Of a stretch of 64,000 nt of DNA, positions 46,270 through 64,000 are shown piece by piece. The stretch is from Roseburia sp. GTDB taxonomy: Bacteria > Bacillota > Clostridia > Lachnospirales > Lachnospiraceae. Numbering within the stretch: the stretch's first letter is position 1; every line of letters begins with the position of its first letter. The notes under the pieces are model-generated. The model had not been told where the DNA came from. It searched no databases and worked only from the letters and a program-made list of their open reading frames with translations. Position numbers and translations under genes: made by a program. The stretch covers positions 1 to 64,000 of the forward strand of contig JAMPFV010000005.1 of the NCBI GenBank assembly GCA_023664265.1, given 5' to 3'.

Positions 46270-48606
46270 TTATAAGCGCCTTATCCCATTCTCATGTCTG
46301 GATCTGTTGCATATTTGTTCCTTAATCTCCGTTGAACTTATTGTCTCTGTATATGGGAAAAACACCATATCAGCTCCACGCTGTTGCAAGAACACCTTTT
46401 TTGCAAGCCAGTCGGGATCGCTTGCATAATCACTGCCTGAAAACTGCACATCAAAGTGATACATATACCATGCATCCACCGTCCCTGGCCTGTCAACGGG
46501 TATCGCGACCGCCTCGTCCACATATCTGCAGGAGCGCACGATCTCAAACCTCTCCTCAAAGGGGATATACGGGCGCGTCTTCTTGCCGTTTATAACCTGC
46601 TCGTCCGATACCACGCCTGCAATCAAATAATCGCACTGTTCCTTCGCGCGTTTCAGCAGGTTCAGATGTCCGATATGAAACAGGTCAAACACGCCCGCCA
46701 CATAGCCGATATGATATTTCTTCGGCGTTCCCTTTTCCTCCTTACTTACGATTCGAACAGGTCTTTCGTAATCCAACCGCGGGTCGTACACAGAAATATC
46801 CTTAATACCCATATCCTTCAGCTGTTCCAGCACGTCCTCGAAAAATTTAATACAGATAAATACCTTGAAGGGGGCGCTAGGCTCCTTCAAAATATCAGGG
46901 GAGTAAATCTCTACGCCCGACAGGCTCTCCCCCCATCTCCGCTCATTGTTGTCAACAATCCCCGTAATGTCGCAGTATTGTCCGAACTGCTCAATAAACT
47001 TCTCCGAATACTTTCCTGAGCCAAACAACCAAATCGCCCTACCTTCTGTTCCCTTAAAAATATTGGTGAACAGCCTTTCATACTCTTCCTGGCTATAATT
47101 CATCCTATGTCGGTTGACAGCTATTGTTTTTCCCTCCGCTCTATGCCGCACATGATATTCGGACAACTTTATATCATTACTATGCATTTGCAAAAATAAC
47201 TGCCCTATTCTTCTCCAGATGTTTTGATGCTTGTAAAGGTTAAAGTGCTTCAACAAGTCTTCCCTGGAGTATATTTTCTCCATATCAGGGCTATCTTCAT
47301 AGATAAAATCAATCGTTCTGATAAAGACAGCATTCGCCGGAAAGTTTTGCACAAAAAATTCCTGATCAAAAAAAACAAATCCCTTTTCAGTATGGAAACA
47401 GTTTATTGACACTAAATCTATATATCCCCGTTTCAGGATCACACCAATATTCCGTCGCTCTTCTTCTGTTCCAAATGCACGTTTCCGCCACTGATCAATG
47501 TTTGGATCATCCTTTTTCCGTTTCTCCCACTCCGGTTCAAACTCTTGCCAGTTTACTTCCTCATAGGGTACATGTTCCGAAGATGCCAAAATAATCTGCC
47601 TGAATGACTCAAGTTCCTGTACAAAAGTCTTTTTGTTCTTTCTCAAAATCTCCTGGAAATACTCCGTCGCAATTTTCCCACCTATATAAGGCATTATATA
47701 CATATCATCCTTTATTTCCGCATCAGCCACGGGAACATTATGTTGCATTAAATCTCCGGATATTTCCATAAGGATTTGCGTCTTATACTTGCCCTCGGGA
47801 TACAAGGCCTTTTTGGCGACCCATTCCGGATATTTTATTACTGTTGCCATGGCTTCCTCCGGATTACAGTCTCCTTGCACTGTAATCTGGTCAAAATCCG
47901 TAGGTACTCCATCCACGCTGCATTCGACCAAAAAGCCGTTGGCCATCTGGTGGAACATATGATTCTCCATCAAAGTCTCATATAGGCGTTCCTCCTCAAG
48001 GTAAACCGTTTCCGGGCTTCTGTATTGCGGGCGAATCCGTACATCCAACTTTTCATTAGGCATATAAGTTTCTGAAATCAGAATTTGCGGTCGCACCAAT
48101 TCCGGCATGACTGAATAGAATTTGTATTTTCTCAAGCCTGCCCTATCAAACATTTTCTGCAGTTCTGCTTTCGCATACGCGCGGCCTCCATTAACTCTTC
48201 TCTGCATATCATTTACTTTGTGATAACCGTCCGGCCCATCCAATATATGCCCCGTAAATGCATCTTTATCTCCGCAAAAATAGCGGACAGCCAATCGATT
48301 CTCCGTTGCGAGAATAAGCTTTCCTTGTTTCCTTAAAAGCTTTCTAAAGCTTACAAGCAGCCTCACCGGTTCCTCACTCTTTTCTATAACTCCGGCTCCT
48401 ATAATGTAATCAAAGGTTCCATCTATTGCATACACTCCTGCTAAATCTGTTTTGACTGCATCTATTTTTTTTTCTCTCAAGGCATCTAACAATACTTCAC
48501 ATTCCAGTATACCGCCTGAAATGAATAGAACCTTGGCCCCTGTCTCAAAATCATACCAACTAATCAATGCCTTGGGTAGGTTTTTGATGATTTTATCTGT
48601 CTCCAT
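46270..48606 (-). CDS. methyltransferase-kinase-Rossmann-cytidylyltransferase fusion
   Basis: This 778-residue protein has four parts. Residues 1-170 are a class I methyltransferase-like domain. Residues 200-490 look like a small-molecule kinase fold: N-lobe KKALYPEG, hinge MPYIGG, catalytic loop GYIDLVSINCF with Asp397 and Asn402, and a DFG-like FFDQEF with Asp414. Residues 520-615 are the Rossmann module (IWLFGSGKYSEKF, then VDNNERRWG). Residues 630-770 are a cytidylyltransferase (GVFDLFHIGHL with HxGH 644-647, ending in TISSTEI). The order methyltransferase then kinase recalls WbdD, the O-antigen chain terminator. Kinase plus cytidylyltransferase could also make a CDP-linked precursor. Confidence 0.82.
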   Translation of the reverse strand: METDKIIKNLPKALISWYDFETGAKVLFISGGILECEVLLDALREKKIDAVKTDLAGVYAIDGTFDYIIGAGVIEKSEEPVRLLVSFRKLLRKQGKLILATENRLAVRYFCGDKDAFTGHILDGPDGYHKVNDMQRRVNGGRAYAKAELQKMFDRAGLRKYKFYSVMPELVRPQILISETYMPNEKLDVRIRPQYRSPETVYLEEERLYETLMENHMFHQMANGFLVECSVDGVPTDFDQITVQGDCNPEEAMATVIKYPEWVAKKALYPEGKYKTQILMEISGDLMQHNVPVADAEIKDDMYIMPYIGGKIATEYFQEILRKNKKTFVQELESFRQIILASSEHVPYEEVNWQEFEPEWEKRKKDDPNIDQWRKRAFGTEEERRNIGVILKRGYIDLVSINCFHTEKGFVFFDQEFFVQNFPANAVFIRTIDFIYEDSPDMEKIYSREDLLKHFNLYKHQNIWRRIGQLFLQMHSNDIKLSEYHVRHRAEGKTIAVNRHRMNYSQEEYERLFTNIFKGTEGRAIWLFGSGKYSEKFIEQFGQYCDITGIVDNNERRWGESLSGVEIYSPDILKEPSAPFKVFICIKFFEDVLEQLKDMGIKDISVYDPRLDYERPVRIVSKEEKGTPKKYHIGYVAGVFDLFHIGHLNLLKRAKEQCDYLIAGVVSDEQVINGKKTRPYIPFEERFEIVRSCRYVDEAVAIPVDRPGTVDAWYMYHFDVQFSGSDYASDPDWLAKKVFLQQRGADMVFFPYTETISSTEIKEQICNRSRHENGIRRL

Positions 48607-48682
48607 GTCTGTTACACCACTTTCTTCCGTCCCCTACATCGCTTCTGCGACTACTCTTTTCACAAGCTCCATATTTTTTAAT

Positions 48683-50011
48683 TTATCTTCCTGCCCACTC
48701 CATTTCGCAGTATCTAAGCACATTGTCCATCCCCGAATCCCAGACAAAAATATCTTTGAAACCTACCGTTGCCGCACATCTTCTCATTTCAAGTTTCGTT
48801 CTTAAATCCGCAACCGCTATAATCACTTTGCAGTTTTTATTTATATTTTCATCCGTTATTAAGCAGACATTTCCTGCATTCCCTGTCAAATCCGAAACTA
48901 TAAACTCAATCTGACAATCCGGGTTTAATTTATTAATAAATGCTTCAATTCTCCGTCCAACCTTCCCTGCTCCATAAATATACAACCTTTTTTCGCATAT
49001 ATATTGTTTGAGCATTTTACCATAAGCCGTCGCATTACGCCGCACTATTTTATCATTTAGCAACATCCTGTAACAGGTCTGTGGAGCTACCGCCCAGATA
49101 TTCATGTTCTCCCACTCTGATATCGTCAACGGTTCCCTGCAAAACTGCAATATTTCACTTGCCCATTTCATTTCCGCAGATGTTTTTATGAAAAATTCTT
49201 CCAGATAAGTCTCATCAATTCTTCCGATATTCCATTGATAACATTTATACATATATATAGAAAGATACGGCAAAATAATGTCCTTCCTCAAACCGGAGTT
49301 CTTCAAATATCTTCTGCACTCCTCTATTTCATCGCAAATACAAAATACCTTTTGCGAAGATTTCACTGATGAATTGTCATTATCCAGACGGTAGTTTACA
49401 AATGCATCCTTTATAAGCATACCTCTATGTGCCGAAACACAAACTTTAAACCAAAATCCTGTATCCTGATATGATGCACCTGCTGTTTCAAGCAGCCATA
49501 TACCTTTGTCTGCCAAGAAACTTTTTCTGTATAAACCTGCCCAAATGCTTTTTGTAAGAAAAAGCTTATCCATATTCTCATATTCCGAATACACTACCCC
49601 ATAATCGCAGCCAGGCTGTTCCTCATGCGCCGCTCTGTGTGTATCACTATATTCATAATAACTGCATTTTACATAGTCAAGGGAATTATTTTCAATAACT
49701 TCACAAAGTCTTTCATACATATTGCTTTCAATAAAATCATCGCTTTCAACAATACCAATATACTCTCCGGAAGCCATGCTGATTCCCAAATTAACTGCAC
49801 TTCCATAACCTGCATTCTTCTTGTGAATCACCTTGATTCTGCTGTCCTTTTGGCCATATCTGTCCGCTATTGTCCCTGATGCATCCGTAGAACCGTCATC
49901 CACACATATAATTTCAATGTCATTGAGTGTCTGGTTTATCACACTCTCAATACATTGCTCCACATATTTCTCAACGTTATATATTGGAATTACTACACTG
50001 ACCTTTGCCAT
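48683..50011 (-). CDS. GT2 glycosyltransferase with C-terminal Rossmann module
   Basis: The 442-residue protein begins with a GT2 fold: SVVIPIYNVEKYVEQCIES, DDG at 38-40 and the DxD-type VESDDF at 88-93. It is an inverting nucleotide-sugar transferase acting at the cytosolic face. From about residue 340 it carries a Rossmann module (LYIYGAGKVGRRIEAFI) of the type shared with ten other proteins here. There is no membrane helix. It lies 76 bases upstream of the four-domain fusion gene and 9 bases downstream of a second GT2 gene. Confidence 0.93.
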   Translation of the reverse strand: MAKVSVVIPIYNVEKYVEQCIESVINQTLNDIEIICVDDGSTDASGTIADRYGQKDSRIKVIHKKNAGYGSAVNLGISMASGEYIGIVESDDFIESNMYERLCEVIENNSLDYVKCSYYEYSDTHRAAHEEQPGCDYGVVYSEYENMDKLFLTKSIWAGLYRKSFLADKGIWLLETAGASYQDTGFWFKVCVSAHRGMLIKDAFVNYRLDNDNSSVKSSQKVFCICDEIEECRRYLKNSGLRKDIILPYLSIYMYKCYQWNIGRIDETYLEEFFIKTSAEMKWASEILQFCREPLTISEWENMNIWAVAPQTCYRMLLNDKIVRRNATAYGKMLKQYICEKRLYIYGAGKVGRRIEAFINKLNPDCQIEFIVSDLTGNAGNVCLITDENINKNCKVIIAVADLRTKLEMRRCAATVGFKDIFVWDSGMDNVLRYCEMEWAGR

Positions 50012-50020
50012 CTTGTCACC

Positions 50021-51040
50021 TCAGTTCCAAACAGACCGAACGGTCTGGTGCCCGGTCACACGCATTTTTCTCCTTTTCAGTAGAACATACAGAAACCCTG
50101 CCATCCGATACCTTATCGCTATGGGAATCCAAAAGCTCTTTTTCGGACTATTCCTATGGTAATGAGATATTGCCATTCTTGTATTCGCAGCATCAACAAA
50201 GGCTTTAAGATTTCTTTTTGTTTCCCTGACGGTTTCCGGAGCATACTTTACATATGTAACAAGCTCCCGTATAATCTGATCAATATAACAAAATGAGAGT
50301 TCTCTCAGACTTCCTGCGCCATCAATTATCCCACAAACCTCATCGTATCTCCTCTGTTCCATCTGATAGTGGTCGTAAAAAATATTTTTGGTACACGAGT
50401 TTTCATTATCATCCATATAATAGTAAACAACATTTTTTATAGAACTTATTTTGTTTACATGCTTCATATACTCCACCACAAATATGGCATCCTCCCCACA
50501 CCGGAGATCCTCAGGAAATCTTACCTTATGGTCGCGTATAACCGCCATCTTATACATACCGATGCAAGATGAAGTCGAACCGAGCCGTTCTCCTTTATAT
50601 AAAGCAATAAAATAATTCTCCACAGAATATGTCCTGTCTTCCAACCGGTTTACATATTCCGTATATTCAAATACTTTTGCCCAACCGCAAAATACCACAT
50701 CGCTGTTCTCCGCAGTTATATTATTTAGCATCAATTCCACAAAATCCGGGGGGATTACATCATCGGCATCCACAAAATGCACATACTCACCCCGAGCAAC
50801 ATCAATTCCATAATTCCTTGCATATGACACACCATGGTTTGTGTTGTGATATGATTTAATCCTCTTATCCCTCAACGCAAAAGCATCACATATCTCACCG
50901 CTTTTATCGGTAGACCCATCGTCTACCAAAATGACCTCAATATTTCTGTAGGTCTGTTCCAATATACTGTTGACTGTACGTCTCAAAAAAAGTTCTGCAT
51001 TATACACCGGAACAATAACCGACACCAACGCCCCACTCAT
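50021..51040 (-). CDS. GT2 family glycosyltransferase
   Basis: The 339-residue GT2 enzyme has SVIVPVYNAELFLRRTVNS, DDG (40-42) and the DADD motif (91-94) for nucleotide and metal binding. The C-terminal third is helical with basic residues, suggesting peripheral membrane contact. It lacks the Rossmann module. It transfers a sugar from a nucleotide donor to the growing glycan; the sugar is unknown. It is nine bases upstream of the modular GT2 gene. Confidence 0.93.
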   Translation of the reverse strand: MSGALVSVIVPVYNAELFLRRTVNSILEQTYRNIEVILVDDGSTDKSGEICDAFALRDKRIKSYHNTNHGVSYARNYGIDVARGEYVHFVDADDVIPPDFVELMLNNITAENSDVVFCGWAKVFEYTEYVNRLEDRTYSVENYFIALYKGERLGSTSSCIGMYKMAVIRDHKVRFPEDLRCGEDAIFVVEYMKHVNKISSIKNVVYYYMDDNENSCTKNIFYDHYQMEQRRYDEVCGIIDGAGSLRELSFCYIDQIIRELVTYVKYAPETVRETKRNLKAFVDAANTRMAISHYHRNSPKKSFWIPIAIRYRMAGFLYVLLKRRKMRVTGHQTVRSVWN

Positions 51041-51053
51041 AAAATTATCCTCC

Positions 51054-52826
51054 TCAGACTCCTACATCAGGCCGGTTATACGAAATACTAACGTCATATA
51101 CCCCGATGTCCTTCACACCCATATCACGCAGTTGCTTCATCACTCTATCATAATTTTTGATACATATAATTACTTTACATTCTTCCACACCAAGCTCCAT
51201 CAACTCACTTGGTGACAGAACCGGTATACCCGCAAAATTCTGTCCCCATTTTTCTGAATTATTGTCCACAACAGCGTATATAGGATAATCGTACCTGTAT
51301 GTTTTAATAAATTTTTTCGCGAAAGTTCCCATGCCAAATACAATTAACTTTTTATCTCTCAATCCATTGAATATATCAAAAAATATTTTCTGGTATTCTG
51401 CATTTGAATAATCCATTCGCTGTCGGTTTCTTTTTATTGTTTCAGAATCAGCCCTGTACTGCTCATAAAACCGGCCCAGCTCATTTTGATGGCGCAGATT
51501 ATTTATAAATTCGGCTGCCTTGCGTCTCCACAAATCAAGGTACCTGTCAAGCCCATACCGTCTCAGGAAAAACTCCATCGGGAGCATCTTATTCATGTCG
51601 CTGTCCGCAGAGTATGCTATCACCAGCATCCGATAGATAATCAGATTAGCCGGACAGTCCTCTTGGCAAAACTCCTGATCATAAAATACATATTCCCCAT
51701 TTATCACAAAACAGTTTAACGGAACCAAATCAAGATACCCTCGTTTGAGTATCACCCCCATTCCGTCATTTAAATCCTCACATGAATGTTCTGATGACTG
51801 CAATATCAAATCCCTGAAACGATCTATTTCTTTTATCAGACATTCCTTGTTCATTTTAACCAAACGCACAAAATATGTGGTTGCTATCTCCGCATCTATA
51901 TACGGCATCACAATAGCGCCATCCTCAAGGACGGCATCCACAACATTTAATCCATGCGCACGCAAATCAGAATCATGTTCTATCATCTGACGCAATTTTA
52001 TCATTCCTTCAGGATACGCAGCCCTCTTTTCTACCCTATTATTATCGCAGACAAGGGTAAACATTGCATTATCTCGCCCTCTGTCCATTGTTGCTGTTAC
52101 ATGTTGGACAGATGAATAATTACTATTCATCGGACATTCTATCAGATACGAATTTGCCATCGCATGAAAAAGTCCATTTTCTATCAAATCTCCGTAAATA
52201 AATTCCTCGTCAATAAAAACGGTACCTGGATTATTGTATGCCGGAACATATCTGGTCGCCAGCTCTTCCACAGGATTATAGTCATGCGCGTAAATAAGCT
52301 GTGGAAAATCTAAATCAGGCAGTACAGAGTAGAATTTAAAACCGTTTATCCCACTGTTGCAAAGCAAATTTTTTATCTCTGCTTTGGTATACATACGCCC
52401 TTCCAAATTGTCTCTTTCGCTCGGTGACATTCTCCTGTAGTTCTCAATGCCATCAAAAACCCTATCTGTATATTTATCCTTATCCCCACAAAAATACCTG
52501 AGTCCCAAACGATTGTCTGCGCCAATCAACAGTATCCCGTCACCTTTTAAAAGACACTGCCATCGTTCTATATCTTTTTGCGGCAGCCTGCATCGTTCTA
52601 ACACACCTATCGCAACTATATAGTCAAAGTCCTGTCTGTTCTCATCCATAAATGCCTGTGTTATTTCCCCTGAATTGATACAGACTGTTTCCATGTTTTT
52701 ATCCATAAAAATACTTTTTAGAAAATCATTTCTGTCCGTCAGATACAATACTCTGCTGTTTTTCTTAAAATCGTACCACTTCAGCAAGCCTTTTGAGAGC
52801 TCACAAATCATTTCATTTTGTGCCAT
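51054..52826 (-). CDS. methyltransferase-kinase-Rossmann fusion
   Basis: The 590-residue protein is a paralogue of the first 615 residues of the gene at 46270-48606, without the cytidylyltransferase. A methyltransferase-like domain comes first (1-170). The kinase-like region then shows Lys267 in VEKRAAYPEG, hinge MPYIDAE, catalytic loop GYLDLVPLNCF with Asp366 and Asn371, and Asp383 in FYDQEF. The C-terminal Rossmann module (LIVFGMGTFAKKF, then VDNNSEKWG) spans about 493-585. Two such paralogues in one island suggest that they act on different ends or sugars of the same polymer. Confidence 0.85.
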   Translation of the reverse strand: MAQNEMICELSKGLLKWYDFKKNSRVLYLTDRNDFLKSIFMDKNMETVCINSGEITQAFMDENRQDFDYIVAIGVLERCRLPQKDIERWQCLLKGDGILLIGADNRLGLRYFCGDKDKYTDRVFDGIENYRRMSPSERDNLEGRMYTKAEIKNLLCNSGINGFKFYSVLPDLDFPQLIYAHDYNPVEELATRYVPAYNNPGTVFIDEEFIYGDLIENGLFHAMANSYLIECPMNSNYSSVQHVTATMDRGRDNAMFTLVCDNNRVEKRAAYPEGMIKLRQMIEHDSDLRAHGLNVVDAVLEDGAIVMPYIDAEIATTYFVRLVKMNKECLIKEIDRFRDLILQSSEHSCEDLNDGMGVILKRGYLDLVPLNCFVINGEYVFYDQEFCQEDCPANLIIYRMLVIAYSADSDMNKMLPMEFFLRRYGLDRYLDLWRRKAAEFINNLRHQNELGRFYEQYRADSETIKRNRQRMDYSNAEYQKIFFDIFNGLRDKKLIVFGMGTFAKKFIKTYRYDYPIYAVVDNNSEKWGQNFAGIPVLSPSELMELGVEECKVIICIKNYDRVMKQLRDMGVKDIGVYDVSISYNRPDVGV

Positions 52827-52845
52827 TTATCATTTCCCTGTATTC

Positions 52846-53985
52846 CTATTCACCACTAGTCAATCCGTTTCCTCTGTTTAAATATGTGCTTTTTATTTTT
52901 TTGATTCGTTCCCCATACTTCTCTCTGGCAATCCATGTCTCCACATCAGCCCATGAAAACTCAACATTGCGCAGTGGATGCGCATAATGGTGAATGGAAT
53001 GCGTGTATTCCGTTATCCTTCCGACAGCACCTTCAAAATCCGTGGGTGCGAAGAATTCCATGGGAAAAACCGCAACATTATTTTTTACCTGAAACTGCCC
53101 GCTTCTCTCAAATCCATACTTTTCCATCACTTCAGACTGTATGACCGGACAGGTTTTCATATTTAAGGAGCCGTCTTCCCAAACAAACGGCATACGTTCG
53201 TATACTTCCAATATATCCTTCAGAATCATATGTCCTTGAACAGCCCCAACCCCAAGCCCCCATGCAATATAATTAGTTCGTTCAAATCCACAAAACAAAT
53301 CCCACACAAGCATATCGTCAAAGGGAGCAATCACCTCCACATCCGTGTCAAAATAGATGCCTCCTTCATGGTATAAAATATCCACTCTCGCATAGTCCGA
53401 TACAAAGGCCCACATTTTCTGCTCATAGGCTTCATGGACGTATCTGTTTTTATGGACATCATAATTCGACTCATCCCATCGGATGATCTCGTAATCGGGG
53501 CAGTATTTTCCCCATGATTTCATATAATTGCGATACTCAATCGGAATTTCTCTCCCGCCAAACCAACAATAATGGATTTTTTGGGGAATAACCGGCCTTG
53601 TCGGTTTCTTCTCTATATGGATTTCTGTATGCTCCGTCTGCAGGGCAATCAAAAAGTCTACATAACAATCCATTCCGTCACATTCCCTTATGGAATCTAA
53701 CTGTTCCAGTAATTCCTCAATGGCGGCACAGGTGATGACAACTACGCTGTTCCCATCACACCGCTTTGCAAATTCTTCGGCGGAAATCACGGGAACCGTT
53801 TTCCCGTTCATAAAAACAGATTTTTTTCCCACATGGCAGTAATTATCAATGATACCTTCCACCACGACTTCGCTATACTCACTGGCAAATGCCTGCAGTC
53901 TTTTACCCGCTCCGAAACAATACAACTTCTTATTTTGCACCCGCTTGACAAATTCACTTTTACTGCAGTCTATCAGATTTATCAT
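52846..53985 (-). CDS. Rossmann module fused to GT32-type glycosyltransferase
   Basis: The 379-residue protein has an N-terminal Rossmann module (LYCFGAGKRLQAF, then GIIDNYCHVG; residues about 18-110). A GT32-like domain follows (VIPQKIHYCWFGGREIP at 132-148, with the DxD motif DTD at 213-215 in YFDTDVEV). GT32 enzymes transfer mannose, galactose or similar sugars in capsule and LPS synthesis. The gene is one base downstream of the stand-alone Rossmann gene and 19 bases upstream of a fusion gene. No signal peptide or TM helix. Confidence 0.93.
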   Translation of the reverse strand: MINLIDCSKSEFVKRVQNKKLYCFGAGKRLQAFASEYSEVVVEGIIDNYCHVGKKSVFMNGKTVPVISAEEFAKRCDGNSVVVITCAAIEELLEQLDSIRECDGMDCYVDFLIALQTEHTEIHIEKKPTRPVIPQKIHYCWFGGREIPIEYRNYMKSWGKYCPDYEIIRWDESNYDVHKNRYVHEAYEQKMWAFVSDYARVDILYHEGGIYFDTDVEVIAPFDDMLVWDLFCGFERTNYIAWGLGVGAVQGHMILKDILEVYERMPFVWEDGSLNMKTCPVIQSEVMEKYGFERSGQFQVKNNVAVFPMEFFAPTDFEGAVGRITEYTHSIHHYAHPLRNVEFSWADVETWIAREKYGERIKKIKSTYLNRGNGLTSGE

Positions 53986-53986
53986 C

Positions 53987-54472
53987 CTAACCTTCCTCTG
54001 CCCATCTATCTATAACCGACCACATTGAAACAATCGGAACGTTCGTCCTTTCCTGCAACATATCATAAATAGTACCATAATAAAAAATCGGTGTGACAAC
54101 AATGCAGTCAACTTCAGGTATTGCGGAATCAACCCCTATCACAAATTCATTCTCATTTGACGGAGCTGACTTGTCCATTATCGCTACTACTTCTATATCT
54201 GTATCAGATAGCGCTTGAATAAGTCTCTTGCCAATATATCCATTCCCATATACCATAATTTTCTTATATCCGTGATTATGGAAATATTGCTCGATACTGT
54301 TCCCGGAATAAACAAATTCCAACCAGTCATTAAACAACATCATGTTGGAAAGATTACGATCCATCCGCTTCTTATAGTCGTTTATCATGCCTGCCAGTGT
54401 CTTTCCCCCAAGAACAAATCCGATTCCAAATGATGACATCCCTGTCAAACAAATGACAAATTTATTTTTCAT
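53987..54472 (-). CDS. Rossmann-module protein with hydrophobic N-terminus
   Basis: The 161-residue protein consists of a hydrophobic N-terminal segment (about 5-25: FVICLTGMSSFGIGFVLGG), a helical linker (EQYFHNHGYK), and one Rossmann module (IMVYGNGYIGKRL, then IMDKSAP). It has no attached enzyme domain. It is therefore the minimal form of the module found in ten other proteins of the island. Its gene is next to the GT32-like fusion (1 base) and the methyltransferase gene (3 bases). It could be a membrane-anchored docking or nucleotide-binding subunit; this is inference. Confidence 0.82.
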   Translation of the reverse strand: MKNKFVICLTGMSSFGIGFVLGGKTLAGMINDYKKRMDRNLSNMMLFNDWLEFVYSGNSIEQYFHNHGYKKIMVYGNGYIGKRLIQALSDTDIEVVAIMDKSAPSNENEFVIGVDSAIPEVDCIVVTPIFYYGTIYDMLQERTNVPIVSMWSVIDRWAEEG

Positions 54473-54475
54473 TTA

Positions 54476-55138
54476 TCATCGCTCCTTCCTACAGCAAAAG
54501 ACTACTTTAGGTGTATGCATCTTATCTTCATTATGAGTTATTTCCCTTTCTCTCCGGCACTGATATGTCAATCCGATTCTTTTTAAAAATCTCTTCATTC
54601 TCCAAGGTGATATAAAATGCTGCCCAAATCTTTCTTCCGTGTCAATCCCCAAAAATCTGAAATATCTTTCTTTTATTTCTGTCCGCTTAGCGTTTAAACA
54701 AAATACGTTGTATCTGTCCATTATGTCAAAAATCACATACCCGCCCGGTTTTGTCATGGAAGCCATTTTCTTAACCGTTTGATAGAAATCGGGAATATAC
54801 CAGCTTGCCCTTACACAATAAGTAACGTCGTACACTTCCTCAGCTCCCGAATATTCTTTTACATCGCCAACCCAAATTCCTTTTTCATTACCAAGTTCTT
54901 TTTGTGCCAAAGCAATGGAACTTTCAGCCACATCACATCCGTCAATTTCTATGCCCTTGTTTTTCAATGCAGCTCCTATCGGCCATCCTGTACCAATCCC
55001 CACTTCAAAGACCTTCTTTGGTTTCGATTTTAAAATCAGATTAACAAGATTTTGTTCATATAGCCCATAACCATACTTTTTTGTCTGACTCGCCCAATAT
55101 TTATTATATACTGTTTTGTAGTATTGAATCTCATCCAT
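54476..55138 (-). CDS. SAM-dependent methyltransferase
   Basis: The 220-residue enzyme is a class I SAM-dependent methyltransferase. Motif I is KKVFEVGIGTGWPIGAAL (about 39-56), the acidic residue at the end of strand two is in DGCDVAESSIAL, and motif IV-like residues lie in YDVTYCVRASW. It acts in the cytosol on a small acceptor or nucleotide sugar. It lies between the aminotransferase gene upstream and the stand-alone Rossmann gene three bases downstream. Lack of the Rossmann module sets it apart from the fusion methyltransferases. Confidence 0.9.
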   Translation of the reverse strand: MDEIQYYKTVYNKYWASQTKKYGYGLYEQNLVNLILKSKPKKVFEVGIGTGWPIGAALKNKGIEIDGCDVAESSIALAQKELGNEKGIWVGDVKEYSGAEEVYDVTYCVRASWYIPDFYQTVKKMASMTKPGGYVIFDIMDRYNVFCLNAKRTEIKERYFRFLGIDTEERFGQHFISPWRMKRFLKRIGLTYQCRREREITHNEDKMHTPKVVFCCRKER

Positions 55139-55172
55139 ATCCTTTATATCCCCATTTCCTTATTCCGACACG

Positions 55173-56207
55173 CTACTTCAAAAGATACCTCTCCATCTCC
55201 TCCACGGCCATCTCCGCTTTATCCCAACCGTAATAAATCGGCGCACATTTATGGTGCTGTGCCACCCAATAACTGTTCGGCAGTTCCGCATTGACTCCTT
55301 CTATTTCGTTCCCGAAATCCGTATAATTAAAAACTTTACCTGTTTCCTCCTTCAAATTTTGGTCAAACACTATATACTTATAATATCCCGACTGCATCCC
55401 CTCAGGTAAAACAACCCGTTTGTCAAAAATCCGGTCAAATTTCCGCGCCAGATTTCTTTTCCATTCCAGAACGGCAGGCAGACGCTCCATCTGAACAATC
55501 CCCAATGCCGCGGTAAATTCACTGATCCTGTAATTGAAGCCCTCCTTCATCGGATAGGTGACAATGTTTCCGTTAAGCACTTCCTTACCGTAATTGCGGA
55601 ACTTCTTCATCCACGCAATCAGCTCCCTGTCCCTGCTGACAATCATCCCGCCTTCCCCGAGCGGCATCGTCTTGGTCGCATAAAAGCTGTAGCTCCCCGC
55701 CAATCCGTAGCTTCCCGCCGTTTTTCCATTCCATTCTGCCCCGTGTGCATGGGCACAGTCCTCAATCAATGCAATCTTATGCTCTTCACAATACTTCGCT
55801 GTCTTTTCTATATCAAACGCAATATGTCCGCCGATATGCACGATAATGACCGCTTTCGTATCCGGAGTGACTTTGCTCACCATATCTTCATAGCTCATGC
55901 AGAGGTCTTCCCTGTTACAGTCCGCATATACCACCTTCGCTCCCGCCTTCTTGGCCGCCTGCGCAGTAGCCCAGAAGGTATTTGCCGGCACGATGACTTC
56001 CTTTCCCCTGACGTCCACATATTCCAGTATGGACAACAGACCCGCGCCGCCGCTTGTCACTGCACAGGAATACAGCCCCGTAAACTCTTCAAATTTCTCT
56101 TCAAATGTTCGTGTCATTTTTCCGTCAGACCAGAAATTTGACTCGAACACTTCGTCCAACAGCTGATAATATCTTTCCCTGTATTCTTTCTCAAAAGGCA
56201 GTACCAT
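55173..56207 (-). CDS. DegT/DnrJ/EryC1-type sugar aminotransferase
   Basis: The 344-residue enzyme is a PLP-dependent aminotransferase of the DegT/DnrJ/EryC1/StrS family, which aminates keto-sugars. The PLP lysine is Lys179 (SFYATKTMPLGEGG), and the conserved acidic segment is ALIEDCAHAHGA (Asp150). It implies a 3- or 4-amino sugar in the island's glycan. No dedicated dehydratase or ketoreductase is visible nearby, so the keto-sugar would come from another locus. The start at ATG 56207 has GGAGG 7 bases upstream. Confidence 0.95.
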   Translation of the reverse strand: MVLPFEKEYRERYYQLLDEVFESNFWSDGKMTRTFEEKFEEFTGLYSCAVTSGGAGLLSILEYVDVRGKEVIVPANTFWATAQAAKKAGAKVVYADCNREDLCMSYEDMVSKVTPDTKAVIIVHIGGHIAFDIEKTAKYCEEHKIALIEDCAHAHGAEWNGKTAGSYGLAGSYSFYATKTMPLGEGGMIVSRDRELIAWMKKFRNYGKEVLNGNIVTYPMKEGFNYRISEFTAALGIVQMERLPAVLEWKRNLARKFDRIFDKRVVLPEGMQSGYYKYIVFDQNLKEETGKVFNYTDFGNEIEGVNAELPNSYWVAQHHKCAPIYYGWDKAEMAVEEMERYLLK

Positions 56208-56220
56208 CTTTTTCCCTCCG

Positions 56221-57267
56221 CTAAATAAAATGCTTTGAATGTACCTTCTCCAACTGCTCAAATATCACATTAAATCCCGTCACCCTGCACGCGCTGCACC
56301 CGTTCTGGCATTCCGCATTCAGCAGCCTCTGGCTGATCTGCTCCCGATACGGAGAAACCCAGATGTCCTCAAAGGAATTTTCATATACATTGCCTAGGAT
56401 AATTCCGTCCTCCCTTCTTTTCTCGCACAGCGCCACCTCACCGTTCGCATGGATGACCGATGTCAGGGAGTGCGCGATGCATGGAAGTCCCGCATTCTTC
56501 TCCACTATCCTGTCGGAAATTGCCAGCATATATTTAATCCTTGTATCCGCCGTCAGTTCCGCCATTTTTTTTCTCAGGTCGAGAAGAGCTTCCAGCGACG
56601 GTGTAATATCTCCCGCTTCCTCCACCGGTCTCAAATAAATGTAATCAATTCCCATCCTGTCCAGCTTTTTCACCAACTCCGTCAGGCTGCCTTGGTTTCT
56701 GGTCGTCAGCACATATCCCACTCCGATAAATGTTTCCTCGGGGTTCCTTGCTTCGGACATTTTCTCCAGATTTTCCAGAACACGTTCAAAGCAGTCCACA
56801 CCCTTCTCCCTTTTGTATTCCTCCCCTGTTCCGGAATCCAATGATACCCTTACCCATTTCAGTTTATCAACACTGTCCGATATGTCTGTCGTACCGTTCG
56901 ATATGAGTCCCATGTCAATGTTGGAAGCTTTCCCCGCAGCCACGATTTCCCTGAACTCCGGATGCAGGGTCGGCTCTCCGCCTCCCTCAAGAGTGACACC
57001 CGTTCCATGCTGCCAAAATTCGCGGAACAGCCGTTTTACCGTCTGTGCATCCAAAACCGCTTTATTTTGCCTTAGCTCCTTATCCGTACACCATTCACAG
57101 TTCAGGTTGCAATTGTCTGTCAGGTGAAGCTCCACACTGATTGGGAACTGCTCGTCCATTTTTTTAATGCCGTTCCGGACAGCAAGGACGGAGTTCACCT
57201 TCTCGTTATTCAAAAGCAGCTTCAGCTTACTGTATTCAAATTCATCCCAATAATTTATCCCATGCAT
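56221..57267 (-). CDS. radical SAM enzyme with SPASM-like C-terminus
   Basis: The 348-residue protein has a radical SAM motif C53-x3-C57-x2-C60 (NCNLNCEWC) in its N-terminal barrel. The C-terminal cluster is cysteine-rich (LPCIAHSLTS, VALCEKRRED, QNGCSACRV), like SPASM auxiliary iron-sulfur clusters. Such enzymes modify peptides or sugars, including epimerisation, dehydrogenation and C-C bond formation. No precursor peptide was seen, so a sugar or glycan substrate is likelier here. It is immediately upstream of the aminotransferase gene (13 bases). ATG 57267 has GGGGGAG 7 bases upstream. Confidence 0.92.
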   Translation of the reverse strand: MHGINYWDEFEYSKLKLLLNNEKVNSVLAVRNGIKKMDEQFPISVELHLTDNCNLNCEWCTDKELRQNKAVLDAQTVKRLFREFWQHGTGVTLEGGGEPTLHPEFREIVAAGKASNIDMGLISNGTTDISDSVDKLKWVRVSLDSGTGEEYKREKGVDCFERVLENLEKMSEARNPEETFIGVGYVLTTRNQGSLTELVKKLDRMGIDYIYLRPVEEAGDITPSLEALLDLRKKMAELTADTRIKYMLAISDRIVEKNAGLPCIAHSLTSVIHANGEVALCEKRREDGIILGNVYENSFEDIWVSPYREQISQRLLNAECQNGCSACRVTGFNVIFEQLEKVHSKHFI

Positions 57268-57293
57268 ATCATGCTCCCCCACTCATTCCAATT

Positions 57294-58766
57294 CTAATCC
57301 CACAGCGCACGCCACTTGGGTGCCAACACATCCCATGAGGAATGATTCCAAACGAGCTCCGCATTTTTCCCGCATCTTTCTTTATAGATATCCGGATTTG
57401 CAACAACATCCTCCAAAACCGCCGTTACGTCAGGTATCGTATCCACGTCAAGGAAATAAATCCCCATTTCATGTAATGACCTGTAGGGCAGCCAGCTTCC
57501 GGCTATGACAACGCTCCCCGCATACATCTCCTCCAGCATGGTGGAGCTCAACTGATCTGTCGTTTGGACATGGATCATGATGTCGGAGATCAGGGCATAC
57601 TCGGCCATTGATTGGAAGTCCATAAATTCGGTCAGAACTACATATTCAAGACCAGTTTTATCTAATCTACATCTGACTTTTTCAATATATGCCTTACTTC
57701 CATTATATGTCATTGGAAATACACAAACTATTTTTTGTTTTTCATCGTCTTGCAAATTACACAGCGCATCTATAATATCCATGTGTTGATGTGCTTCACT
57801 GGCATTATGTCCACATGTAACAACAAATTTGTCTAATGGAATATGGTACTTTCTTTTCATTTCATTGTTATTCTGATTTTTGCTTGAATTAATAAAATCC
57901 AGCACCTCTATCCCAAAAGGAAGAAATCCCACTTGACCCTTTATTTCATCACTATAATAATCCTGAAATTCCCGAACAGTTTCTTCTGTTTCTGCAGTCA
58001 CTTTGTCCGAACATGCAATTAATTTCCTCTTGAAATCTCTTTCAGTTCTACTTGCCCTATAGAATTCACTTCCCCCCACATTAAGATAAAGCTTTCTTGT
58101 CTTATTCCTTAATACTTTATAAAAATATGACCATACATTTTCAATCCACAGCACCTGCATTACATCATACACTGGCAACTGAGCCAAAATTGTTTTTATG
58201 TCTGATTTAGTCTGAAAAAAATAAATATGTTTCAGGTATCTTGCATCTATCTTATCCTTGTTTTCCTGTTCGCTCGTTAACAGGCTGATCTCTATATCAT
58301 TGTATCTTTTAGCCATATTCTCAATAAGCTGTTTCGTATACACAGAATAAAACGAATAAATTATCAGTATCTTTTTATAACCTGTACTTTGTTCTTTATT
58401 ATTGAGCAAGTCATGCTGCACCAGTTCCTTCTCTGTTCCATCTATTTTTTGCGCATCTAATGGATACACCTCATACCTAAACGAATCATTTATTCGGACA
58501 CCCTCCCCCAAATATATTCTATCCCGGTCAACACCCATCTGCAGTAACTGATATAAAATATCAATGTAAAAATTTGTCGGTGTAATAACAATATTACAAT
58601 CATATTGTAGTATTTCATTTGGAGCTTTTACTACATAGCCTTCAAAAGCACTGCCCCATTTTTCCTGTTCATTATCCGTCACAAACAAAATACGATATTT
58701 ATTTTTTAACCAATGAACCGCTTTTTGTCCATTCTTCCCTATACCAAAAACTATCACATTCTTCAT
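57294..58766 (-). CDS. Rossmann module fused to GT-B glycosyltransferase
   Basis: The 490-residue protein has an N-terminal Rossmann module (about 1-95: VIVFGIGKNGQKAVHWL, then VTDNEQEKWG). A GT-B, GT4-like glycosyltransferase follows: a YSFYSVYTKQLIENMAKRY N-lobe, a C-lobe with CGHNASEAHQHM and, near the end, STMLEEMYAGSVVIAGSW. The cytosolic face is expected. A longer frame of seven codons upstream has a weak site; I start at ATG 58766. It is 26 bases upstream of the radical SAM gene. Confidence 0.9.
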   Translation of the reverse strand: MKNVIVFGIGKNGQKAVHWLKNKYRILFVTDNEQEKWGSAFEGYVVKAPNEILQYDCNIVITPTNFYIDILYQLLQMGVDRDRIYLGEGVRINDSFRYEVYPLDAQKIDGTEKELVQHDLLNNKEQSTGYKKILIIYSFYSVYTKQLIENMAKRYNDIEISLLTSEQENKDKIDARYLKHIYFFQTKSDIKTILAQLPVYDVMQVLWIENVWSYFYKVLRNKTRKLYLNVGGSEFYRASRTERDFKRKLIACSDKVTAETEETVREFQDYYSDEIKGQVGFLPFGIEVLDFINSSKNQNNNEMKRKYHIPLDKFVVTCGHNASEAHQHMDIIDALCNLQDDEKQKIVCVFPMTYNGSKAYIEKVRCRLDKTGLEYVVLTEFMDFQSMAEYALISDIMIHVQTTDQLSSTMLEEMYAGSVVIAGSWLPYRSLHEMGIYFLDVDTIPDVTAVLEDVVANPDIYKERCGKNAELVWNHSSWDVLAPKWRALWD

Positions 58767-58783
58767 ATATGATCTTTCCTTTT

Positions 58784-59725
58784 TCAATAAATTTTTTTAA
58801 TATATAGTGCGGTCACTGTATAAAAACTTTTTAAGGCATATCCTTCCTCTCGCATCTTCTTATGAATTGACGTTTCCAGCACTGCTTCAATATCGTTCTG
58901 ACCCAATAATTCTATCAATACACATTTGGGCTGATATTTCTTCCAATTGAAGGAATAAACAATCCGCTCATCAAATCCCTCTACATCAATATCAACAAAG
59001 TCAATTTTCTCAATGTGATATTCTTCCAAAATATCATTAATATTGCGGACTTTAATAACTTTGGTAGCTGTGACAGACTGTAAATTTTCCTCTTCCACAA
59101 AGGAATTTTTCCCCTCGGCTCCTTCAAAAATATGATATACTAACTCTTCATTTTTATCAGATACCCCACAATTAATATTAATATCTTCCGGACGAAACAT
59201 ATTAAACAGTTTTATACTCTGCTCATTTGGATCTATATTCATCCCTCTCCACCCTAATTCATACGCCCATCTTGTATTATTATAAGCAAACGGATGATAT
59301 GCACCTATATCCAGATAAAATCCTTTGTATCCGTTCAAAAAACCATTGCATGTAAACCAATGCTCCAATCCCACGTCTTCACCCAACTGGGAATTGATAA
59401 CCTTATTCCACGCATCTCTTATATCAACTATGCCCTGCCCTGTATTTGGCGTATATGCTTTTGCAAAGGAAAGTAACCCGTCCTCAGCCAATTGCAATAT
59501 GATTTGATCCATTCCGGCACGAGTTGTAATATAAATAATATCATTTTCTTTGTCAAATTGACTTTTCAATTCATCATACCCATAAACAAGAATTTCCTGA
59601 AACAATTCTCCTTGCCTTTCAGGCGAATTATCAACAAACCCTTTGCATTTTAATTTCCCATATTCTTTTATATACTTTTCTCCCCATTTTCCAGCTCCAA
59701 AAAGCCATATGTTTTTCCCAGACAT
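58784..59725 (-). CDS. Rossmann module fused to FkbM methyltransferase
   Basis: The 313-residue protein has an N-terminal Rossmann module (NIWLFGAGKWGEKYIKEY, then FVDNSPERQG). A FkbM methyltransferase follows, with LDIGAYHPFAYNNTRWA as SAM motif I and VDIDVEGFDERIV as the acidic segment. It is a paralogue in layout of the gene at 45086-46213. The start is uncertain: ATG 59725 (site GAGAGG 9 bases away) or ATG 59731. It ends 17 bases upstream of the next gene. The acceptor is unknown. Confidence 0.9.
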   Translation of the reverse strand: MSGKNIWLFGAGKWGEKYIKEYGKLKCKGFVDNSPERQGELFQEILVYGYDELKSQFDKENDIIYITTRAGMDQIILQLAEDGLLSFAKAYTPNTGQGIVDIRDAWNKVINSQLGEDVGLEHWFTCNGFLNGYKGFYLDIGAYHPFAYNNTRWAYELGWRGMNIDPNEQSIKLFNMFRPEDININCGVSDKNEELVYHIFEGAEGKNSFVEEENLQSVTATKVIKVRNINDILEEYHIEKIDFVDIDVEGFDERIVYSFNWKKYQPKCVLIELLGQNDIEAVLETSIHKKMREEGYALKSFYTVTALYIKKIY

Positions 59726-59739
59726 ATCCATCTTCCTCT

Positions 59740-60960
59740 CTACCAATAACATCCGTCTTCTACTTCTTTATAATTCTGTGGTTTCAAATCATCTGTTGGT
59801 CTGACCCAATATTCATTATATAATTTATGTTGATAATCATAGCCGCTTTCTTCCCAGCGTTTTCCTTTTATTCCAAACAAAATCTGCAAGGAGCCTCCCA
59901 TATGTATCGCTTTCTTACGTAACTCTGATTTTATGAACGCTCCCAGCGGCATACCGTATGCACCACAGCCAATCAGGGCAATATCAAAATCTATTGTTCT
60001 AATATCATTTTTCATTTTATCTAATGCCATAAACCATGACTTAAACTCTGAATTTCCATTCATTGACTGCACTGCCTGATATACAATCAGGTTCATCTCG
60101 GGCAAAATATTTTGTGTTTTAAATAGTCTGCTTCGGTATACATATTGTTTTGCTATCAATTTTGCAAACGGATGAATTGCCAATACCGTTTTTCCTCTCA
60201 ATGCTCTTGTCCATGAGGAATCCGGCCAAAAAGGATACATCATATTCGACGTAACTAATATAGCTTTGGGAGAATAAAGTTTATATAGATCCTCTATCCA
60301 TGTGCACCAACATCCAGCTATCAAAACATCAATTTCTCCTGCAGCACTCGCACTGCATTCTGAAAACTTATGAATAGAACCATTATCTATCGGATAAAAT
60401 CCTGCATTATTTTTTAATGAAAATGCTACAGAATCACTAAGCATTCCTGCTAAATCCGCATAAACAGCCTCACCTTCCACACCTCCCCATCGTGAACATA
60501 GAAAAGGAAGATTGTCATTTAGTTTATTCTCCAGCATTTCTTTTGCTTCTGTATCCCCTAATGGCTTACACATTTTCTCTCCATTATAAAACCCCTTTTC
60601 ACCTAGCCTTTGTGTTAAAAAAGCATAATCCTTATGCTGATATCTATACATTACGGCTTTATTATTATACAATAATATTTCCTCTGAAATCTCATTCGCT
60701 GTCTTTTCAGATTGAACAGCTATAATAAATTTTATCTTATCAATTTCACTTTTTATCTGCTCCAAAGTTATATGTTCATTCATATCTTTAATAGCAGAAT
60801 CTTTTTTATCATAAATCCAAATATTTTTTAATTTATTAACCCGAATTTCCTGTAAAAGCATGCGTCCCCATCTGCCTGCTCCCCATATAACCACAGAGGA
60901 ACTTTCTCTGATTTTCGCCACATCTTCCCACCCCCGTACTATTTCCATATATTTATTCAT
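59740..60960 (-). CDS. Rossmann-like module fused to GT-D-like domain
   Basis: The 406-residue protein begins with a Rossmann-like module (VVIWGAGRWGRMLLQEI, then IWIYDKKDS; about residues 20-110). A domain resembling GT-D glycosyltransferases follows (NLPFLCSRWGGVEGEAVY, and later LVTSNMMYPFWPD). GT-D enzymes act on glycans attached to surface or serine-rich adhesins. The match is by motif only. The start is ambiguous: ATG 60960 touches the GGAGG, and ATG 60948 is 12 bases away. It lies 12-36 bases downstream of the GT4 gene depending on the start. Confidence 0.78.
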   Translation of the reverse strand: MNKYMEIVRGWEDVAKIRESSSVVIWGAGRWGRMLLQEIRVNKLKNIWIYDKKDSAIKDMNEHITLEQIKSEIDKIKFIIAVQSEKTANEISEEILLYNNKAVMYRYQHKDYAFLTQRLGEKGFYNGEKMCKPLGDTEAKEMLENKLNDNLPFLCSRWGGVEGEAVYADLAGMLSDSVAFSLKNNAGFYPIDNGSIHKFSECSASAAGEIDVLIAGCWCTWIEDLYKLYSPKAILVTSNMMYPFWPDSSWTRALRGKTVLAIHPFAKLIAKQYVYRSRLFKTQNILPEMNLIVYQAVQSMNGNSEFKSWFMALDKMKNDIRTIDFDIALIGCGAYGMPLGAFIKSELRKKAIHMGGSLQILFGIKGKRWEESGYDYQHKLYNEYWVRPTDDLKPQNYKEVEDGCYW

Positions 60961-60996
60961 CCTCCAACTACAACAAAAGCACATATAAGTATTCTG

Positions 60997-62646
60997 CTAC
61001 CCTTTGCCTGACATATTGTAAACAAGGCTGTCTATCACTGTACTTAACCCTATTACATTATCATATCCAAGCTTTTTAATTTCACTAATTATCTGTTTTT
61101 CAGACAAAATTACTGTAACAACTATGGCATCTGCATCCAGTTCTAAACTATCCAACCATGAGAACTCAAAAATTTTGTCCATTCCATTCGGATTTTTATC
61201 CAGCAGATATCTAATTTCTATATCACTGTTTTCCAGTTCATCATACAGCCTGCAGCCCAATGCCCCCATACCATAAATAGCTATACTATGAATATGATTT
61301 TGTTTGAAATATTCGCTGAACGAATGACCATTTTGTCTGATTTCCAGCCATTTTAACGCCACAGGAAACATTAAAGCCGATTTTCGATATAAGACACCCT
61401 CTGTATTTCTTCTATTAAAATCCTTAAGTTCGCTAATTGAGGTATAATATGCCTTTAGTGTATTCAAAAACTCATCATAATTATAAGATTCAAATGCTTC
61501 TATTGTTTCATTATAAATCCTTAGCAATTCCACGCAATACTGCTTTGAATCAAACGTATTTTCTGCATATTTTTGTGCCTTACAAACAAGAATATTCTTT
61601 TGTTCCTCAGTACAATTTATAGCTCGTTCCATTGTATCTGCAAGTGATTTACTGTTCCCTAATTCATACAAAAAACCTCCTTCTTCATTGGAACCGATAA
61701 TTTCTGTTGTTCCGCCGCTCTTTGCGCCGATTACAATATTTCCCGCAAGCATCGCTTCTATCGTCACTCTGCCAAGCGCTTCATTCTGTGAGCTGGTTAT
61801 TGCATATGACGCACAGCTACGCAACTGTGACAAATCCTCCTGAAACGGGAGAATATGAATATTATTTTCCAGTTTTTTTCTTTTGATATATTTGTTCAAC
61901 GCCCAGACATAACCTGACGACCCATTTCCTACTATAATAACTTTAATATCGTCATGCCCCTTTTCCACAAGGTGTTCCGCTGCTTGAATAATATCCCACT
62001 GCCCCTTTTCAGGCGTTATCATCGCCGCTGCGATAAAAACTTTATCAAATTTCTCCCTTATCACTTCGTCTCTCTTAAAACGCTTAATATTCAACCCATT
62101 GTACAATCTGTATGTTTCAAGCCCGTATTTTTTTTCATATTGCTTTTGAACATAGTCTGATATTGCAATCCGTTTATCTGCTTTTTGGAAAAGACTTATT
62201 TTTAACTCTTCATTTAGGAACTCGCAGCCAAACTGTTCCTGAAGCAGTTCCCGTATATGCCAGATATATGGAATATGCGCCATTAAGGCGGCTATTGCGG
62301 CAAAAGAACTTACGCTGGAATTAATATGTATTAGTTGAATCTCTTCTTTTTGAATAATTGGAAGCAACTGTAATGCAGCTTCATAGCTTTGTATCACATC
62401 CTGCTTTTTCTTATCCATGCCCGCGCTTCCTATTTTTACATAATCCGTGGCGAACGGAATCCTGTAACACTTTATCCCTAATTCAGTAAAATTATTTTCA
62501 ACCTCCGCGCCAGCCTGTATAATAACGATTGGATTTATTTCGCTTTTTATTTCAGATAATGTGTCCAACAAAGACTGCCCCGCGCCGCCAAAGCCAGTGT
62601 CGTTAAATATATACATGATGTTTTTTTGAATATTATTATTGTGCAT
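60997..62646 (-). CDS. GT4 glycosyltransferase with C-terminal Rossmann module
   Basis: The 549-residue protein is a GT4 glycosyltransferase of GT-B fold. A donor-binding C-lobe has QNEALGRVTIEAMLAGNIV with the EX7E pair, and PEKGQWDIIQAAEHL precedes it. A Rossmann module ends it (IAIYGMGALGCRLYDEL, then LLDKNPNG; about residues 450-545). It is the first gene of the main island, 12 bases from the next. Its upstream 141 bases contain the terminator of the retropepsin unit, so the island needs its own promoter, which I could not pin down. Confidence 0.93.
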   Translation of the reverse strand: MHNNNIQKNIMYIFNDTGFGGAGQSLLDTLSEIKSEINPIVIIQAGAEVENNFTELGIKCYRIPFATDYVKIGSAGMDKKKQDVIQSYEAALQLLPIIQKEEIQLIHINSSVSSFAAIAALMAHIPYIWHIRELLQEQFGCEFLNEELKISLFQKADKRIAISDYVQKQYEKKYGLETYRLYNGLNIKRFKRDEVIREKFDKVFIAAAMITPEKGQWDIIQAAEHLVEKGHDDIKVIIVGNGSSGYVWALNKYIKRKKLENNIHILPFQEDLSQLRSCASYAITSSQNEALGRVTIEAMLAGNIVIGAKSGGTTEIIGSNEEGGFLYELGNSKSLADTMERAINCTEEQKNILVCKAQKYAENTFDSKQYCVELLRIYNETIEAFESYNYDEFLNTLKAYYTSISELKDFNRRNTEGVLYRKSALMFPVALKWLEIRQNGHSFSEYFKQNHIHSIAIYGMGALGCRLYDELENSDIEIRYLLDKNPNGMDKIFEFSWLDSLELDADAIVVTVILSEKQIISEIKKLGYDNVIGLSTVIDSLVYNMSGKG

Positions 62647-62717
62647 TTTGTGTGTTCCCTCGTTCTACAAAATATATTGTTTCTTTCTGAATAAAATCTT
62701 CTTCCAAAAAATAAATA

Positions 62718-62760
62718 AAAAATCTGATGTATCCGTACAGACTTCATACTTTACATCAGA
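62718..62760 (-). terminator. terminator after the retropepsin gene
   Basis: TCTGATGTA (62723-62731) and TACATCAGA (62752-62760) form a perfect 9-bp stem with a 20-base loop. On the minus strand it ends in a run of six T. It separates the retropepsin unit from the GT4 gene at 62646. Confidence 0.8.
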
Positions 62761-62787
62761 CTTTAATCTTATTTATTCAATTATCTT

Positions 62788-63457: not shown

Positions 63458-63498
63458 ATTATTGCCCCCGATTTCTTAATAATGCAATTATTATATTT

Positions 63499-63527: not shown

Positions 63528-63624
63528 ATCATTCTTCAAACTTACATTTGTTTATTGATGTAAAGTATAAAATTGTCAAGGTACTGTTTCTGCATTACTT
63601 ATTGTAACAGCGTCTTTTACTTCC

Positions 63625-63993: not shown

Positions 63994-64000
63994 ACTAAAA

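What the first reader, a model, noticed from the sequence alone, without database searches (positions are those of the whole stretch)
46270..52826. Two methyltransferase-kinase fusions, one with a cytidylyltransferase tail
Seen: both proteins have a methyltransferase-like head followed by a region with kinase catalytic residues in order (DLxxxN at the catalytic loop and FxDQEF in the DFG position; Asp397/Asn402/Asp414 in the larger, Asp366/Asn371/Asp383 in the smaller), then the Rossmann module. One adds a HxGH cytidylyltransferase. Known: WbdD, which ends O9a polysaccharide chains, has methyltransferase then kinase. Inference: these are chain terminators or make a methylated CDP-linked cap. 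I know of no described protein with this exact four-domain order.
Basis: partly seen in the sequence, partly recalled or inferred. Interest (0 to 1): 0.72.

Follow-up and report, generated by a model that had tools for sequence, protein, structure and literature searches.

The report
Fused kinase-cytidylyltransferase with dead methyltransferase head
Two neighbouring genes in a gut bacterium's surface-sugar island encode a kinase behind a methyltransferase-shaped head that has lost its cofactor-binding motif, and one of them also carries a cytidylyltransferase, so together they most likely prepare a still unknown small alcohol for attachment to a surface sugar chain through phosphate, rather than capping the chain with a methyl group.

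Summary
In detail: window 46270-48606 (778 aa) reads methyltransferase-like head, kinase-like region, Rossmann module, HxGH cytidylyltransferase (CTase); 51054-52826 (590 aa) has the first three. The order is conserved in about 18 relatives in Lachnospiraceae and elsewhere in Bacillota. No paper found in my searches describes it.

The interpretation changes. The head keeps a methyltransferase fold but has lost the SAM motif in 18 of 18 rows of this branch; most unfused relatives keep it. Kinase catalytic residues are kept; the closest solved sequence match is the choline kinase LicA (weak). The CTase is of ethanolamine/glycerol-phosphate type. A TIM-barrel protein without metal ligands (TIM1) is the next gene in 17 of 20 loci and occurs in 9 of 11 fusion genomes and 0 of 288 others; an intact barrel usually follows. 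CDP-dependent transferases (LicD or TagF-like) lie on the same contig in 12 of 13 fusion genomes, including this one.

Best reading: a kinase-CTase that makes CDP-X, X unknown, for transfer to a glycan as phospho-X; it works like lic1, with a relic methyltransferase head. The kinase fold and X remain unproven. The 590-aa protein probably lost its CTase.

The parts
46270..48606 (-). 778-aa four-domain protein (MT-like head, kinase-like, Rossmann, CTase)
   Evidence: ORF; order conserved in about 18 relatives
47962..48606 (-). residues 1-215: class I methyltransferase fold without the SAM motif (pseudo-methyltransferase head)
   Evidence: fold; motif loss:
47107..47961 (-). residues 216-500: kinase-like region; D397, N402, D414, E416
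   Evidence: secondary structure; Foldseek RioK1 on the paralogue
46792..47046 (-). residues 521-605: Rossmann module shared by many island proteins
   Evidence: (3nkl, E=0.0023)
46303..46719 (-). residues 630-768: cytidylyltransferase, HxGH (HIGH) and ISST motifs
   Evidence: PF01467; ethanolamine-phosphate CTase 3elb E=1.4e-22, 4.9e-30 with the profile
51054..52826 (-). 590-aa paralogue without CTase (MT-like head, kinase-like, Rossmann)
   Evidence: inside the four-domain clade in the tree
52176..52826 (-). residues 1-217: MT fold without SAM motif
51420..52175 (-). residues 218-469: kinase-like; D366, N371, D383
51102..51359 (-). residues 490-575: Rossmann module
   Evidence: (Rex)
48683..50011 (-). 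GT2 glycosyltransferase with weak C-terminal Rossmann; a GT2 homologue lies directly upstream of the fusion in several relatives
   Evidence: PF00535; Rossmann only i-E 0.019
50021..51040 (-). GT2 glycosyltransferase between the two fusion genes
   Evidence: PF00535

Best explanation
The 778-aa protein is a two-step activating enzyme. Its kinase domain phosphorylates a small alcohol X (inferred), and its cytidylyltransferase joins X-phosphate to CTP to give CDP-X (inferred from the family). A TagF-like (PF04464) or LicD transferase then moves phospho-X from CDP-X to the glycan (inferred). X is probably produced or interconverted by the partner pair of TIM-barrel proteins, an intact one (TIM2) and one without metal ligands (TIM1); in this genome that pair lies on another contig (C100). 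The methyltransferase head is a relic that no longer binds SAM and probably serves as scaffold for the kinase. The Rossmann module is a shared docking or nucleotide-binding module of the island. The 590-aa protein is a paralogue that lost its CTase and may act as a second kinase. Shown: domain order, residue conservation, motif loss, gene neighbourhood and co-occurrence. Not shown: any activity, and the identity of X.
For: CTase over the Pfam cut-off; nearest solved CTases are ethanolamine-phosphate and glycerol-3-phosphate types. Kinase residues conserved. Weak kinase homology with choline kinases and RioK1 fold match. The parts occur separately but close together in G453: intact MT-kinase, then LicD-Rossmann, two PF04464 proteins, then CTase-Rossmann within about 13 kb; and in G080: MT-kinase, CTase-phosphatase, LicD-Rossmann. 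Standalone relatives of the CTase have LicD within 1.5 kb in 9 of 18 loci. TIM1-Rossmann at E<=1e-50 in 9 of 11 fusion genomes and 0 of 288 others of the same 299-genome sample. TIM1 is the next gene in 17 of 20 loci, in one of them (L016) within the same ORF. LicD or PF04464 lies on the same contig within about 33 kb in 12 of 13 fusion genomes, in this one at C56:81654-82748. SAM motif lost in 18 of 18.
Against: No Pfam kinase match. hhalign of my kinase profile against LicA-type kinases did not beat decoys for the main set (18.5 against 20.3 for a TIM barrel; 28.8 for the second set). Models are of modest quality (mean pLDDT 57.4 and 63.8, 8 and 7 sequences), and the CTase part is not modelled with confidence. 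X is unknown. In this genome the TIM pair is not linked to the fusion. G264 and G080 have the parts without TIM1. LicD and PF04464 are common in polysaccharide islands, so the same-contig counts have no strict null; G475 has none on the fusion's contig.
Confidence: 0.6

Rival explanations
1. WbdD-like terminator: the kinase phosphorylates the non-reducing end of the island's glycan and the head methylates that phosphate, ending growth; the CTase is a side activity.
For: Same MT-then-kinase order and similar sizes as WbdD (MT 1-210, kinase 211-459; passages of PMC3482155). Unfused relatives with intact MT and kinase, some with what looks like coiled coil (L050/L096; L101-L104 and L116 as adjacent genes).
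Against: SAM motif lost in 18 of 18. No coiled coil in the fusion. WbdD was not among the hits of three profile searches (the lists of 28 and 57 are cut at 60 rows). Neighbours are CDP-dependent transferases and TIM barrels.
Confidence: 0.1
2. Ordinary lic1-type route: the kinase and CTase make CDP-choline or CDP-ethanolamine for LicD.
For: Kinase closest to LicA, CTase closest to ethanolamine-phosphate CTase, LicD next to unfused relatives.
Against: It does not explain why sugar-isomerase-like TIM barrels travel with the fusion, nor the TagF-like transferases.
Confidence: 0.17
3. The kinase region is a non-catalytic or regulatory relic, and only the CTase is an enzyme, supplied with X-phosphate by another protein.
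For: No Pfam kinase match. A distant relative, L081, has lost the catalytic Asp. Domains without their catalytic residues are common in this system (head, TIM1).
Against: D397, N402, D414, E416 kept in all 21 other rows of A3. The 590-aa protein kept the kinase residues after losing the CTase.
Confidence: 0.1

Closest known systems
WbdD (E. coli O9a kinase/methyltransferase)
   Same: methyltransferase fold followed by a kinase, similar sizes; polysaccharide island (PMC3482155, passages seen)
   Different: SAM motif lost, Rossmann and CTase instead of coiled coil, CDP-transferase neighbours, no sequence hit found
lic1 pathway: LicA choline kinase, LicC cytidylyltransferase, LicD transferase (pathway recalled)
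   Same: kinase plus CTase plus LicD logic; weak sequence match of the kinase to LicA 4r77
   Different: LicC belongs to the NTP_transferase fold (recalled), not the HxGH fold; parts are fused behind a dead MT; TIM-barrel partners
TagD/ethanolamine-phosphate cytidylyltransferases (PF01467)
   Same: CTase domain, HxGH and ISST motifs
   Different: below the equivalog cut-off of TIGR01518 (71.9 of 165.4 bits); fused to three other domains
C. difficile type A flagellin route (CD0241-CD0244)
   Same: phosphorylated small molecule, proposed CDP-activation, transfer by a TagF-like protein onto a sugar (PMC10714395, passages seen)
   Different: separate genes; its CTase resembles NTP transferases; its methyltransferase is needed for methylation; no such fusion is mentioned in the passages seen

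Membership tests
WbdD-type terminator | methyltransferase domain then kinase domain in one chain | tested here: met
   (kinase part supported, not proven)
WbdD-type terminator | intact SAM-binding motif | tested here: not met
   0 of 18 rows
WbdD-type terminator | C-terminal coiled coil | tested here: not met
   Rossmann and CTase follow instead
WbdD-type terminator | sequence similarity to solved WbdD | tested here: inconclusive
   not among the hits; two of the lists are cut at 60 rows
WbdD-type terminator | phosphorylation and methylation of glycan ends | not testable with these tools
   needs assay
Choline kinase / LicA (PF01633) | Pfam match | tested here: not met
   PF01633 not listed for any of 28 members at E<=10
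Choline kinase / LicA (PF01633) | D-x4-N catalytic loop and D-x-E metal motif | tested here: met
   21 of 22 rows; aligned with LicA in register
Choline kinase / LicA (PF01633) | His two residues before the catalytic Asp | tested here: not met
   other residues (mostly Tyr, Phe or Leu) in the rows printed; LicA has His there
PF01467 cytidylyltransferases | family score over cut-off and HxGH | tested here: met
   61.7 bits against 21; HIGH motif
Glycerol-3-phosphate CTase TIGR01518 | equivalog cut-off | tested here: not met
   71.9 against 165.4 bits

The most novel reading that the evidence does not exclude
A fused CDP-X factory in which enzymes carry dead partners: a kinase-CTase built on a dead methyltransferase, working with a TIM-barrel isomerase paired with a metal-less pseudo-isomerase, to make a CDP-linked sugar or polyol that has not been described, for phosphodiester decoration of gut-bacterial surface glycans.
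Probability: 0.35. Interest if true: 0.72.

Novelty: new variant of a known kind. Interest (0 to 1): 0.55.

Why it matters
The fusion joins in one chain steps that are split among genes in the lic1 and type A flagellin routes, so it names kinase and CTase as consecutive steps. Its tight co-occurrence with a TIM-barrel pair points to an activated building block that is not obviously any of the known CDP-polyols. It also gives a graded series from separate MT and kinase genes, through MT-kinase proteins, to a four- and a five-domain fusion, in which the methyltransferase decays as the CTase is gained: a good case for how a dead enzyme domain is kept.

Tried and rejected
The viral fold library gave methyltransferases and mixed hits only. 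Pfam on the kinase region: nothing useful. hhalign of kinase profiles against LicA and CotS-like sets: weak. The ranking test put four PF01633 kinases (L120, L126, L123, L125) among the first non-family hits, but methyltransferase-only relatives (L099, L101, L102, L103, L104, L082) were mixed in with them, perhaps because of a shared edge, and L126 was not in the catalytic register, so I count three. Simple story checked and qualified: SAM motif loss is not confined to the fused branch; 4 of 17 unfused relatives (L110, L111, L112, L116) also deviate. The distant CTases L004 and L005 of this genome were looked at only. Searching L105-type proteins added little. Paper searches found no description of this fusion; only open-access PubMed Central papers were searched. 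Of the papers, passages were seen for PMC10714395, PMC3482155 and PMC11833859; PMC6697681 only as a listing.
Full report
OBSERVATION. For the 778-aa protein Pfam gives a cytidylyltransferase over its cut-off (PF01467, E=1e-16) and methyltransferase models only below cut-off; the 590-aa protein gets PglD_N and CoA_binding at sub-cut-off scores.

RELATIVES. The four-domain order is not unique. It is in L011-L015 (Lachnospiraceae or Clostridiales, 65-67% identity) and L016 (N-terminus cut by the contig end); in G265, G273, G207, G262, G184, G267, G264, G236, with a fragment in G170; in G475 and G536; and in G1027 and G1006, of another family in the same phylum. In the even sample of the family, 11 of 299 genomes, this one included, match at E<=1e-40; that count includes G080, where the parts are split, and the G170 fragment. 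In the class sample 23 of 391 match at E<=1e-30, but most of these match only the CTase. In the phylum sample, searched with the 590-aa protein, 6 of 398 match at E<=1e-20. So it is widespread but rare.

HEAD. In the alignment, 18 rows of the fused branch (four-domain proteins, the 590-aa protein and L026) reach the SAM motif. None has the acidic-x-G-x-G-x-G loop, and the stretch between strands 2 and 4 is shortened compared with L055. Unfused relatives mostly keep the loop: by my reading, 13 of 17, with L110, L111, L112 and L116 deviating. The fold is still that of a class I methyltransferase (best VIA rows Z 15.7, rmsd 3.8, 154 aligned, and Z 15.1, rmsd 3.3, 149 aligned). I conclude that methylation is unlikely. 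This is an inference from sequence.

KINASE. D397 and D414 are kept in 21 of 22 rows and N402 in all 22; the lysine column 265 is K or R. The predicted secondary structure is kinase-like in order, with pLDDT block means mostly 60-90 over residues 250-390. A 28-row profile of this region finds the choline kinase LicA (4r77) first among solved structures, E=0.008, with the catalytic loop and the D-x-E motif in register; the domain's own E is 0.096, so this is weak. RioK1 appears at Foldseek rank 37 for the 590-aa model with probability 0.99. In a background of 623 ORFs the first hits outside the family and its methyltransferase-only members include PF01633 kinases, three of them in register. Against this: no Pfam match in 28 members, and hhalign against LicA-type kinases is no better than a decoy for the main set.

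CTASE. The closest solved chains are ethanolamine-phosphate CTase (E=1.4e-22 alone, 4.9e-30 with the profile) and glycerol-3-phosphate CTase. Standalone relatives of 138-216 aa in other Clostridia have a LicD gene within the 1.5 kb flanks in 9 of 18 loci (L036, L037, L039, L040, L043, L046, L056, L057, L058; L035, L051, L052, L053, L004 and L005 were listed but are not in the 18, being fused, longer or distant; L037 and L039 are weak, E 3e-5 and 6e-6; some loci come from the same genome).

NEIGHBOURS. The next gene after the fusion encodes TIM1, a xylose-isomerase-like barrel (PF01261) with the same Rossmann module, in 17 of 20 loci: L011-L015, in the same ORF in L016, and G265, G536, G207, G475, G262, G184, G236, G267, G273, G1027, G1006 (a small ORF lies between in G1006). 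The exceptions are this genome, G264 and the fragment G170. A second barrel, TIM2, usually follows. In 14 of 14 TIM1 proteins aligned the His of the D-T-G-H motif and both His of the H-x-H-D motif are changed, and in 13 of 14 the last Glu; in 13 of 13 TIM2 proteins aligned all of these are kept (that these are metal ligands is recalled from the family). In the same 299 genomes, TIM1 at E<=1e-50 occurs in 9 of the 11 with a fusion match and in 0 of the other 288; weaker matches in 7 further genomes and in G264 cover the barrel only or are short. In this genome TIM1 and TIM2 sit together on contig C100, away from the fusion.

TRANSFERASES. PF04464 (TagF-like, uses CDP-polyols) occurs on this genome's own contig at C56:81654-82748, beyond the window's end, on the same strand; the genome's only LicD is on C45. 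Of 13 four-domain genomes searched, 12 have LicD or PF04464 on the fusion's contig within about 33 kb; G475 does not. In unfused relatives the parts lie side by side: G453 (L062) has MT-kinase, LicD-Rossmann, two PF04464 proteins and CTase-Rossmann; G080 (L065) has MT-kinase, CTase-phosphatase and LicD-Rossmann.

ORIGIN. In L101-L104 and L116 an intact or nearly intact methyltransferase gene stands next to a separate gene that matches the kinase profile; by eye or by weak matches some of these carry coiled coil, and one has GT2. Then come MT-kinase proteins (L055, L096, L098), the four-domain form, and L016, which adds TIM1. The order of these steps is my inference. In a quick tree the four-domain label needs three changes; the 590-aa protein and L026 fall inside that clade, so loss or splitting-off of the CTase is the simplest account (the fork that holds the 590-aa protein is at 90 and drawn open).

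MECHANISM. I read the protein as kinase plus CTase making CDP-X for a LicD- or TagF-like transferase, with X linked to the TIM-barrel pair. The closest published logic is lic1 (recalled) and the C. difficile type A route, where CDP-threonine and a TagF-like transferase are proposed (PMC10714395, passages). WbdD shares the domain order (PMC3482155, passages), but the head here lacks its motif and the coiled coil is absent. No search of mine found this fusion described.

Noticed in passing
C56:46270-81634 (window 46270-63999 and beyond its end): The Rossmann module of the fusion recurs in about 12 different proteins of the island at i-E under 1e-3 (glycosyltransferases, FkbM-like, TylF-like, radical SAM and HAD-like proteins), as if it were a shared docking module.
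   Followed up: partly
L008 / L090:11451-13767 (C100 of this genome): A TIM-barrel pair, one lacking metal-ligand residues and one intact, adjacent to each other and unlinked from the fusion in this genome.
   Followed up: partly
L016:3-3017: Five-domain form: the four-domain fusion continues in one ORF into the TIM1 barrel.
   Followed up: partly
L081:1459-3108: The reverse decay: methyltransferase loop largely kept, but kinase Asp-Asn-Asp changed to Asn-Asn-Asn.
   Followed up: no
window 62788-63213 and L060:16712-17137: Two related 141-aa ORFs (E=1e-55) with a match to retropepsin-like aspartyl proteases close to or under the cut-off within the sugar island.
   Followed up: no
window 55173-57282: A DegT-type aminotransferase ORF overlaps the end of a radical SAM/SPASM ORF.
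   Followed up: no
L065:10212-11693: CTase fused to a calcineurin-like metallophosphatase in G080.
   Followed up: no
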